In this document: positions 28,041 through 46,643 of the stretch, piece after piece | How positions within the stretch are numbered: the stretch's first letter is position 1 | Layout: each line of letters starts with the position of its first letter | Assembly: GCF_020171315.1 (NCBI RefSeq) | Contig: NZ_JAIUZP010000005.1 | Location: 186,001-250,000, forward strand | Direction of reading: 5' to 3' | Source of the DNA: Pseudooceanicola nanhaiensis | GTDB lineage: Bacteria > Pseudomonadota > Alphaproteobacteria > Rhodobacterales > Rhodobacteraceae | DNA length: 64,000 bases | The notes under the pieces: generated by a model | Database searches by the model: none | What the model saw: the letters and a program-made list of their open reading frames with translations, nothing else | What the model was told of the DNA's origin: nothing | Made by a program: the position numbers and the translations under genes

Positions 28041-28105
28041 GGGGGGCTGTCTGCCCCCCGGCTGCTACGCAGCCTCCCCCCGAGGATATTTGGGAACAGT
28101 GGATG
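28041..28105 (+). repeat. Hairpin repeat family, copy A
   Basis: The element has three parts. First, GGGGGGC-TGTCT-GCCCCCC forms a 7-bp hairpin (28041-28059). Second, GGCTGC-TAC-GCAGCC forms a 6-bp hairpin (28060-28074). Third comes a tail TCCCCCCGAGGATATTT followed by GGGAACAGTGGATG. It starts 13 nt after the metalloprotease stop on the same strand and may act as its 3' end. Copies B (32394), D (43327) and E (46576) share the full layout; copy C (39085) shares mostly the tail. Confidence 0.85.
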
Positions 28106-32170: not shown

Positions 32171-32231
32171 TGTCATCCTCCACTTGCGACGGGCGGGGCA
32201 AGTATCGGACGGCCTTGGGGCGCGGATCCGG

Positions 32232-32316
32232 ACCTTCCCTCCGCCGGTCTTAACCGGTTCAGGTTCAACGGGTTCGCGGATCACCGCATCTCAGCCACTG
32301 TGGGGCACCCCGAGGT
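32232..32316 (-). ncRNA. TPP riboswitch (THI element) of thiBPQ
   Basis: The minus strand carries the conserved core of a TPP riboswitch. GGGGTGCCC is near the 5' side, CTGAGA (complement of 32289-32294) lies in the pyrimidine-sensing helix arm, and ACCCGTTGAACCTGA (complement of 32259-32273) forms the pyrophosphate arm. GGTTAAGACC and GGAGGGAAGGT close the element. It ends about 60 nt before the thiB start. TPP binding is expected to reduce translation or transcription of the operon. Confidence 0.95.
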
Positions 32317-32393
32317 GGGGGCGACACTAGTGAGCGACGGGGCGGCTGGCAAGGGGGGTGCGATCGGGCCTGCGGGAGGGGGGCGAGGGGGCA

Positions 32394-32455
32394 GGGGGGC
32401 TGTCTGCCCCCCGGGCCTGCGGCCCTCCCCCCGAGGATATTTGGGAACAGTGGAT
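32394..32455 (+). repeat. Hairpin repeat family, copy B
   Basis: Same three-part layout as copy A. GGGGGGC-TGTCT-GCCCCCC is at 32394-32412, the variable hairpin is GGGCC-TGC-GGCCC (32413-32425), and the tail TCCCCCCGAGGATATTT then GGGAACAGTGGATG runs to 32455. It lies between the TPP riboswitch (opposite strand) and aroC, the only copy not directly downstream of a same-strand gene. The 373-bp gap between thiB and aroC holds only this element and the riboswitch. Confidence 0.85.
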
Positions 32456-32543
32456 GGGGGGCGGGCGGCCTGCCGGGGCCTTGCGCAATTGAACTGCGGG
32501 GCGGTTCGGGATAACGGGGGGCGAAGTCAGGAGGACGCGCCCC

Positions 32544-39084: not shown

Positions 39085-39136
39085 CCCGGCCGGGAGGTCG
39101 GATGCCTCCGGCGGGGATATTTTGGAACAGTGGATG
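39085..39136 (+). repeat. Hairpin repeat family, copy C (degenerate)
   Basis: This copy keeps the tail GGGGATATTTTGGAACAGTGGATG-like part (split here as GGGGATATTTT and GGAACAGTGGATG) but lacks the GGGGGGC-TGTCT-GCCCCCC hairpin. A GGAGG...CCTCC stem precedes the tail. It starts about 38 nt after the ExoD stop on the same strand. Confidence 0.6.
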
Positions 39137-42355: not shown

Positions 42356-43324
42356 ATGACTGACCTCATCCGCCCGACACAGGACAGCCACCCGAGGATG
42401 GCCGAAGCCCTGCGCGAGGGCCTCGAGACGCTCTGCGCGGGCGATCCCACCCTGCGCGGCGCCGTTCCCGTCGACATGCTCCGCTTCGTGCCCGGGCGGC
42501 GCGTGGTCTTCCGTGGCACGCTCGACGGCACGCCCGCGATCTTCCGCATGGCCAAATCCGACAGGGACGTGGAGGCCTTCGCCGCGGAATGGCAGGAACT
42601 GACCCGCGCCGCCGCCGCCATGGCCGAAGGGGCGAGCGCGGTGAACCGTCCGCTCGCGCTCGGCGCCGGGGGCCGGGTCATGGCGCTGGAACAGGTCGCG
42701 GGCCTGCCCTTGCTGGACCTGCTCTGGCAGCTGGAGACCGAGGACCGCCTGCGCTGGTGCGTCCGCGCGGCCCACTGGCTGGCCGGATTCACCACGGGGA
42801 CCGAGGCGCGGGGCGCGATCAATCGCGGTCCCTGGCGCACATGGGCCGAAGAGGCCGCGGCGAAACAGACCCATGCAGAGCTGATCGAGATCGAGGGTCG
42901 GGTGCTCCAGAAGATGAAGAAGCTCTCCCGCGGCTTGCGCGAGGCGACGTGGCGCACGGCGATCTGCCACGGGGATTTCCACCCGAACAACCTGATCGCC
43001 GTCGGAGACCGGCTCACGGGGATCGACCTCGGCGGGTCGCGCCGGGCGCCGATCTACCGGGACATCGCCCGCTTCCTGACCCATATGTCCCGCCGCGGCA
43101 TGCTGCCCTCCGGTCAGCGCCGCTTCGGCGTCGACGCCGCCGCCTACGAGGCCTTCACCACCGCCTTCGCCATGGACGAGGAGGAGGCCACCCGCATCCT
43201 GCCCTACCTGATCTGCTATGAATGCCTCGTGCGCGTCGAACACCCCGACATGTCCCGCGACCGCATCGCCCACGCCCGCACCATGGCCGAGGGCCTCTTC
43301 GAGGATCTCCGGCAGATCGCCTGA
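42356..43324 (+). CDS. Phosphotransferase family protein (APH-like kinase fold)
   Basis: A 322-residue protein of the aminoglycoside phosphotransferase/choline kinase superfamily. The Brenner motif HGDFHPNN near residues 203-210 carries the catalytic Asp and the Mg-binding Asn. The DFG-like second motif is GIDLGGS, where a second acidic residue is still present. Members phosphorylate diverse small molecules or homoserine, so an antibiotic-resistance role should not be assumed. It is divergent from xseB and followed at 2 nt by repeat copy D. Confidence 0.85.
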   Translation: MTDLIRPTQDSHPRMAEALREGLETLCAGDPTLRGAVPVDMLRFVPGRRVVFRGTLDGTPAIFRMAKSDRDVEAFAAEWQELTRAAAAMAEGASAVNRPLALGAGGRVMALEQVAGLPLLDLLWQLETEDRLRWCVRAAHWLAGFTTGTEARGAINRGPWRTWAEEAAAKQTHAELIEIEGRVLQKMKKLSRGLREATWRTAICHGDFHPNNLIAVGDRLTGIDLGGSRRAPIYRDIARFLTHMSRRGMLPSGQRRFGVDAAAYEAFTTAFAMDEEEATRILPYLICYECLVRVEHPDMSRDRIAHARTMAEGLFEDLRQIA

Positions 43325-43326
43325 CA

Positions 43327-43391
43327 CATCCACTGTTCCGAAATATCCTCGGGGGGAGTCGCGGCACGCGACGGGGGGCAGACAGCCCCCC
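43327..43391 (-). repeat. Hairpin repeat family, copy D
   Basis: On the minus strand GGGGGGC-TGTCT-GCCCCCC comes first, then GTCGCG-TGC-CGCGAC, then the tail TCCCCCCGAGGATATTT with GGAACAGTGGATG, one base different from copies A and B. It starts 62 nt after the stop of the minus-strand petR-type gene and abuts the convergent phosphotransferase stop. The second stem differs completely from copies A and B but is again perfectly paired. Confidence 0.85.
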
Positions 43392-46575: not shown

Positions 46576-46643
46576 CTTCATCTTTCCAGCAATACTCTCG
46601 GGGGGAATTGGCCCGCAGGGCCAAGGGGGGGCAGACAGCCCCC
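46576..46643 (-). repeat. Hairpin repeat family, copy E
   Basis: On the minus strand: GGGGGC-TGTCT-GCCCCC, then TTGGCCC-TGC-GGGCCAA, then TTCCCCCCGAGAGTATT and GGAAAGATGAAG. The tail has diverged (GAGAGTATT instead of GAGGATATT; GATGAAG instead of GTGGATG) in a form familiar from other Rhodobacterales intergenic repeats. It starts 8 nt after the App1 stop on the same strand and ends 10 nt before the ProC-like ATG. Confidence 0.8.

What the first reader, a model, noticed from the sequence alone, without database searches (positions are those of the whole stretch)
28041..28105. Five-copy hairpin repeat family placed mostly just after stop codons
The sequence shows five related elements at 28041-28105 (+), 32394-32455 (+), 39085-39136 (+), 43327-43391 (-) and 46576-46643 (-). 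Four have a constant GGGGGGC-TGTCT-GCCCCCC-type hairpin (6-7 bp), a second hairpin and a tail TCCCCCCGAGGATATTT plus GGAACAGTGGATG or a diverged form of it. Four of the five lie 8-62 nt downstream of a gene on the same strand. That strand and position bias suggests a 3'-end element (terminator, stabiliser or small RNA) rather than random repeats. Similar tails seem familiar from Rhodobacterales genomes, but I know of no assigned function.
Basis: partly seen in the sequence, partly recalled or inferred. Interest (0 to 1): 0.7.

Follow-up and report, generated by a model that had tools for sequence, protein, structure and literature searches.

The report
Dialect-tagged hairpin repeats at gene ends
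A short repeated element in a marine bacterium sits at the ends of genes and carries a nearly exact 12-letter tag that differs from species to species, which looks like an unrecognised family of gene-end signals whose reader is not yet known.

Summary
The five copies are real and belong to a large family. The main tail has 67 copies in the genome (reversed-pattern control 0). All 80 copies of the GGGGGCTGTCTGCCCCC hairpin carry a core and a tail. Architecture: hairpin 1, hairpin 2 with variable but complementary arms, a C-run, GRRTATTT, two free bases, a 12-base tail. Each genome uses a few nearly exact tail words, and the words differ between species. Against Maritimibacter alkaliphilus, core and tail differ by 1.6% and 3.3%, the two free bases by 28%. 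At 20 of 68 classified orthologous sites the tail changed to another word while the hairpins stayed. Copies cluster at gene 3' ends: 43 of 91 in convergent gaps, 4 of 91 in divergent gaps. No Rfam match, no REP transposase in 22 genomes, no paper found in eight searches. Best reading: a transcription-unit-end element whose core and tail are read by an unknown, species-specific factor. That mechanism is inferred.

The parts
28041..28105 (+). Element 1, long form: hairpin 1, hairpin 2, C-run, core GGATATTT 28084-28091, spacer 28092-28093, 12-mer GAACAGTGGATG 28094-28105
   Evidence: sequence and pattern; fold z -3.4
32394..32456 (+). Element 2, long form, between divergent genes; core 32435-32442, 12-mer 32445-32456
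   Evidence: one of 4 divergent-gap copies of 91
39085..39136 (+). Element 3, short form with CCTCCGGCGG; core 39115-39122, 12-mer 39125-39136; convergent gap between an ExoD-family gene and the 1-deoxyxylulose-5-phosphate synthase gene
43327..43391 (-). Element 4, long form; 12-mer 43327-43338, core 43341-43348; tail 2 nt from the stop of the convergent gene 42398-43324
46576..46643 (-). Element 5, long form with another tail: GAGTATTG core 46590-46597, 12-mer GGAAAGATGAAG 46576-46587; the next gene on the same strand starts 10 nt further on

Best explanation
A transcription-unit-end element of Rhodobacterales. Shown: a fixed scaffold (two stem-loops in the long form, a C-run, GRRTATTT), two free bases, and a 12-base tail that is one of a few nearly exact, genome-specific words; placement at 3' ends of genes and rarity in divergent gaps; strong conservation of core and tail at orthologous sites; change of the tail at fixed sites while the hairpins stay. 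Inferred: the hairpins act in RNA as a 3'-end or decay barrier or as a termination aid, and core plus tail is the binding site of a sequence-specific factor, most likely a protein, whose specificity differs between species and which marks or blocks the end of a transcription unit in either orientation. The C-run may pair with the G-run that follows the tail and so show the tail in a loop. How tails are exchanged is unknown; short-patch copying from another element is my guess.
For: 67 copies against 0 in the reversed control; all 80 hairpin-1 copies end in a core (or a one- or two-base variant) and a tail; hairpin-2 arms match their own partner in 40 of 45 distinct segments, 6.3 expected after swapping partners, maximum 17; convergent 43 and divergent 4 of 91 against 43 and 63 of 252; differences between orthologues 5/304 in the core, 15/456 in the 12-mer, 21/76 in the two spacer bases, 123/760 just downstream; genome-specific tails.
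Against: No factor was identified and no transcript data were seen. Long copies lie in either orientation, which a simple RNA terminator would not explain. Several tail words coexist in one genome, which one factor does not explain. Some copies have decayed: of 71 orthologous places 3 have a mutated core in G005, one heavily. At the dxs 3' end only 3 of 12 other genomes of the genus whose flank was printed carry the element (9 further loci were not read there), so it can be dispensed with. One copy of 91 falls inside a called gene.
Confidence: 0.4

Rival explanations
1. A REP-like dispersed repeat that spreads by copying and survives at gene 3' ends because insertions do least harm there; homogeneity comes from copying, not from host function.
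For: Both orientations; gene-end position; presence varies at one site within the genus, and without the element the convergent stop codons there nearly touch (gaps 0, 14, 18 nt in G015, G014, G017; 65 nt filled by the element in G006); tails change at fixed sites.
Against: The REP-associated transposase family PF01797 is absent in 22 of 22 genomes of the genus. At orthologous sites core and tail are kept while the spacer and flanks drift, which suggests selection on each copy; a homogenising copying process could mimic this only if it spared the spacer.
Confidence: 0.25
2. An ordinary intrinsic terminator family: hairpin plus TATTT ends the transcript, and the tail is incidental.
For: GC hairpins at gene ends; the short form leans to sense orientation (7 and 1).
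Against: The T-stretch is only TATTT; the conserved 12-mer lies beyond it; the long form is free in orientation; the other strand has a T-run (4 or more T in 8) in only 9 of 134 copies; a separate ordinary terminator follows the tail in 22 of 93 copies, 6.6 expected.
Confidence: 0.12
3. A 3' UTR small-RNA module: cleavage in the AU-rich core frees an RNA whose 5' part, the tail, is the seed.
For: A T-rich core that fits the recalled RNase E preference; terminators downstream of the tail in 22 of 93 copies; exact tails.
Against: The element lies antisense to the flanking genes in 19 of 91 copies; no terminator found downstream in 71 of 93; tail words interchange at fixed sites.
Confidence: 0.08
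4. A DNA-uptake or self-recognition signal like the Neisseria DUS: a short word with species dialects, spread by preferential uptake.
For: Species dialects, nearly exact words of 12 bases, gene-end position, switching at fixed sites.
Against: Few copies (67 of the main word, 80 with hairpin 1, in 4.8 Mb). The exact 12-mer is never found outside the scaffold (58 of 58), whereas uptake signals also sit in coding DNA (recalled). No receptor was looked for.
Confidence: 0.08

Closest known systems
REP / palindromic units with RAYT transposases
   Same: Dispersed extragenic palindromes, orientation-free, at 3' ends of transcription units, family-specific sequence (REP features recalled; the listing of PMC2817692 was seen, not the paper)
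   Different: No PF01797 transposase in the genus; hairpin arms vary while a single-stranded core and tail are kept; several exchangeable tail words
Neisseria DNA uptake sequence and its dialects
   Same: Short nearly exact word with species dialects, often at gene ends (recalled; listing of PMC3630211 seen, not the paper)
   Different: Far fewer copies, always behind a hairpin scaffold or CCTCCGGCGG, never alone
Intrinsic transcription terminators
   Same: GC-rich hairpin and a short T-rich stretch at gene ends
   Different: Only TATTT, no orientation bias in the long form, conserved sequence beyond the T-stretch

Membership tests
REP-RAYT | Y1 transposase (PF01797) in the genome | tested here: not met
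   0 of 22 genomes of the genus; the control set rang in 5 of 14 named genomes
REP-RAYT | Extragenic palindromes at 3' ends in either orientation | tested here: met
   43 convergent, 25 and 19 co-directional, 4 divergent of 91
REP-RAYT | Conserved GTAG at the foot of the hairpin (recalled) | tested here: not met
   Not seen at the hairpin foot in the 67 aligned copies (by eye)
Intrinsic terminator | Hairpin directly followed by a U-run | tested here: not met
   Only TATTT, after a C-run; other strand 4 or more T in 8 in 9 of 134
Intrinsic terminator | Transcript 3' ends at the element | not testable with these tools
   No RNA data
DNA uptake sequence | Word present throughout the genome, coding DNA included (recalled) | tested here: not met
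   58 of 58 exact words lie in scaffolds
DNA uptake sequence | Enhanced uptake of tagged DNA | not testable with these tools
   Needs an experiment
Any Rfam 15 RNA family | Covariance-model match over the element | tested here: not met
   Window at gathering thresholds and 12 element loci at E up to 1: none at an element

The most novel reading that the evidence does not exclude
A genome-wide set of transcription-unit-end tags: a constant hairpin scaffold carrying an exchangeable 12-base cassette that is read by a co-evolving, species-specific factor and rewritten in blocks across the genome without a known transposase, so that each species of Rhodobacterales writes its gene ends in its own dialects.
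Probability: 0.3. Interest if true: 0.82.

Novelty: new variant of a known kind. Interest (0 to 1): 0.63.

Why it matters
Repeat families with exact, species-specific words often betray a recogniser, as the uptake sequence did for ComP (recalled). The pattern is widespread: 99 of 149 genomes sampled from the order (all listed as the window's own family, the window's genome included) match one limited tail pattern, with 2 hits in all for the reversed control. It sits at gene ends, so the unseen factor may be a general player in ending or insulating transcription in an abundant marine group. The change of whole tails at fixed sites is also a tractable case of concerted evolution of dispersed bacterial repeats without a known transposase.

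Tried and rejected
Antisense small-RNA partner with the full 12-mer: none, 58 of 58 exact copies lie in elements; shorter partners not tested. REP-RAYT: no PF01797 in 22 genomes. Known RNA family: none. Phage origin: no match in 50,697 phage records by distant blastn. Recogniser gene beside the elements: 146 of 170 neighbouring proteins scanned; 249 families matched, of which the tool shows 25, the commonest with 7 members and none of the 25 a transposase. Reverse-strand terminator: T-run in 9 of 134. Strand from wobble pairs in hairpin 2: 2 G.T against 10 A.C in 142 stems, several at stem ends; inconclusive, and if anything it points to the other strand. Matched lengths of the G-run and both C-runs: correlations 0.35 to 0.48 in 70 copies, suggestive only. 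Literature: eight searches listed no description of this element; I saw listings and starts of abstracts, and passages of one paper (PMC8632094), whose Rhodobacterales motifs shown there are others. One search was spoiled by a variable clash and redone; the last, background part failed (division by zero) and was also redone. On rechecking, one search counted one site (L029) as switched because G005 holds two elements there; one search corrects 21 to 20 and gives the numbers used here.

Full report
WHAT IS THERE. The five copies are present. A long copy reads, on its own strand: G5-6, loop CTGTCTG, C5-6 (hairpin 1); a second hairpin; C5-6; GA; GGATATTT; two free bases; GAACAGTGGATG. Copy 3 lacks hairpin 1 and has CCTCCGGCGG before the core (short form). 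Copy 5 has the tail GGAAAGATGAAG after GAGTATTG. RNA folding of the five gives z-scores from -1.7 to -3.4. No Rfam family matches at an element (for the window, for 12 element loci).

GENOME-WIDE. With up to 3 mismatches the tail pattern has 67 hits in the 4.82-Mb genome and 0 for the reversed pattern; all 67 were read. The exact 12-mer occurs 58 times, 58 of 58 inside these elements. Hairpin 1 (up to 1 mismatch) occurs 80 times: 47 carry the main tail class, 6 the tail AGCGAAAGATG, 27 something else. Of those 27, 26 were fetched (20, 6) and one is window copy 5. Each has a C-run, the core or a variant of it (for example TACTT, TGTTT, TGCTT, TATTG), and a tail of another small family such as GAAACGGAAATG, GAAACGAAAATG, GCAACGAAAATG, GGCAAGAAAATG or GGAAAGATGAAG; a few of these tails are shortened or off by a base. 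So the scaffold is constant and the tail is one of several words. In gaps of 535 kb of this genome and G005, 25 of 29 hits of a C-run or CTCC followed by TATTT or TACTT had a family tail; the other 4 look like chance. Elements without hairpin 1 and with other tails were not all fetched, so the total is larger than I read; one search lists 108 core-pattern hits, chance hits included and the list cut.

HAIRPIN 2 IS SELECTED FOR PAIRING. Among 45 distinct hairpin-2 segments of this genome, 40 have 5 of 5 complementary bases between their own arms; with arms swapped between elements the mean is 6.3 of 45, maximum 17 in 300 trials. Of 65 long copies, 60 have a stem of 4 to 11 pairs, with 35 different arm pairs; 5 have none.

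POSITION. Gene calls come from my own codon-usage caller and are not curated. Of 91 copies with both neighbours called, 43 lie between convergent genes, 25 and 19 in co-directional gaps in sense and antisense, 4 in divergent gaps (93 copies were listed in the like count). Element-free gaps of at least 60 bases were 43 convergent, 146 co-directional and 63 divergent of 252, mostly from G005. Both differences are significant (p 5e-8 and 5e-6). With six late loci added the numbers are 45, 27, 23 and 4 of 99 (2 dropped). Orientation is not biased in the long form (18 and 18, later 20 and 22); the short form leans to sense (7 and 1, p 0.07). Of 62 copies whose tail faces the 3' end of an opposite-strand gene, 25 end within 10 bases of its stop codon. 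An ordinary terminator follows the tail in 22 of 93 copies, 6.6 expected from shuffles. Neighbouring genes are diverse: 146 of 170 were scanned, 249 families matched, and the commonest had 7 members.

DIALECTS. The same architecture carries other words elsewhere: GACCAGAGGAAG in G004, GAACAGAAGAAG in G026, GGCAAGATGAAG in G014, GGCCAGATGA with a variable end in G011, AGCCTGGTGATG and AGCCATCGGATG in G016, RCCAAGATGAAG in G101 and G098. The match lists are capped, so I saw the first places only. In the genus 18 of 22 genomes match the generic pattern. Of the 4 without a match, G016, G003 and G009 carry the scaffold with other tails in the stretches that I took; three 20-kb stretches of G010 showed none. 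Of 149 genomes drawn from the order, 99 match one limited pattern, with 2 reversed-control hits in all. A blastn search found 13 plasmid records, of Phaeobacter, Thioclava, Cereibacter, Paracoccus and Leisingera; five were read and all five show core and tail. No phage record matched.

EVOLUTION. In 38 of 40 aligned orthologous sites (two switched sites set aside; a third, L012, stayed in and inflates the 12-mer count) differences are 5/304 in GGATATTT, 21/76 in the two spacer bases, 15/456 in the 12-mer, 123/760 just downstream, 111/1254 in the hairpin region, 243/1520 at -100 to -61 and 365/3740 at -200 to -101 (alignments). These 40 were chosen by the main tail in both genomes or by synteny, so they favour conserved tails. 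In a wider set, 71 of 94 elements could be placed in the parts of G005 that I held; 68 of the 71 have a recognisable core and tail there, 3 have a mutated core, one of them heavily. The other 23 were not placed; much of G005 was not fetched, so this is no evidence of absence. Of the 68, 20 changed tail word and 48 did not (40 of these with identical last 11 bases); 13 changed exactly from GAACAGTGGATG to AGCGAAAGATG and one went the other way. The G005 loci with AGCGAAAGATG were fetched on purpose, so 20 of 68 is not an unbiased rate. The hairpin region is not more divergent at switched sites (60/900 against 230/2160), but the two spacer bases are (21/40 against 26/96, p 0.006). That fits replacement of a block starting after TATTT. 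It is not proof, because the spacer also has word-specific preferences, and a few intermediate words exist (GAACAAGAGATG, GAGCAAGAGATG), so stepwise change is not excluded.

TURNOVER. At the 3' end of dxs, next to window element 3, 3 of 12 other genomes whose flank was printed carry an element (G005, G006, G013), the other 9 do not, and 9 further loci were not read there. In G006 the 65-nt gap is filled by the element; in G015, G014 and G017 the gap is 0, 14 and 18 nt. This looks like gain or loss of a unit and favours the repeat reading.

MECHANISM. Shown: paired hairpins, nearly exact tails, gene-end position, conservation, exchange of tails. Inferred: a factor that reads core plus tail. Neither strand makes a standard intrinsic terminator. 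A G-run follows the tail within 10 bases in 40 of 53 copies with room, baseline 21%; it could pair with the C-run and hold the tail in a loop, or begin a terminator hairpin. A boundary element read by a species-specific factor explains position, freedom of orientation and dialects, but not the coexistence of several words in one genome. The strongest rival, a REP-like repeat without host role, explains freedom of orientation, turnover and spread, but not the conservation pattern, and the REP transposase is absent.

LITERATURE. Eight searches listed no paper on this element. I saw listings and starts of abstracts, and passages of one paper (PMC8632094). Only open-licence PMC papers are held, so a description in a subscription journal would have been missed.

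Noticed in passing
window 32219-32322 (-): A TPP riboswitch (70.6 bits) upstream of a solute-binding-protein gene, in the same divergent gap as element 2.
   Followed up: no
L263 and L266 (Phaeobacter and Thioclava plasmids): Nearly identical elements on plasmids of two genera, tail five bases from the stop codon of a GIY-YIG nuclease gene on the opposite strand.
   Followed up: partly
L004, L015, L059, L062 and others, just before hairpin 1: A further repeated unit, about GCGCCTGCGGCGGGCGGGGA, often precedes hairpin 1 (by eye).
   Followed up: no
G005 orthologues of L006, L013, L024, L042 and others: The core varies as TACTT in 5 of 38 orthologous pairs, its only variable position in that set.
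   Followed up: no
L022, L047; G014:C1:566287-566346: Pairs of elements in opposite orientation within about 40 to 180 bases; in L022 and L047 both members changed tail in G005.
   Followed up: partly
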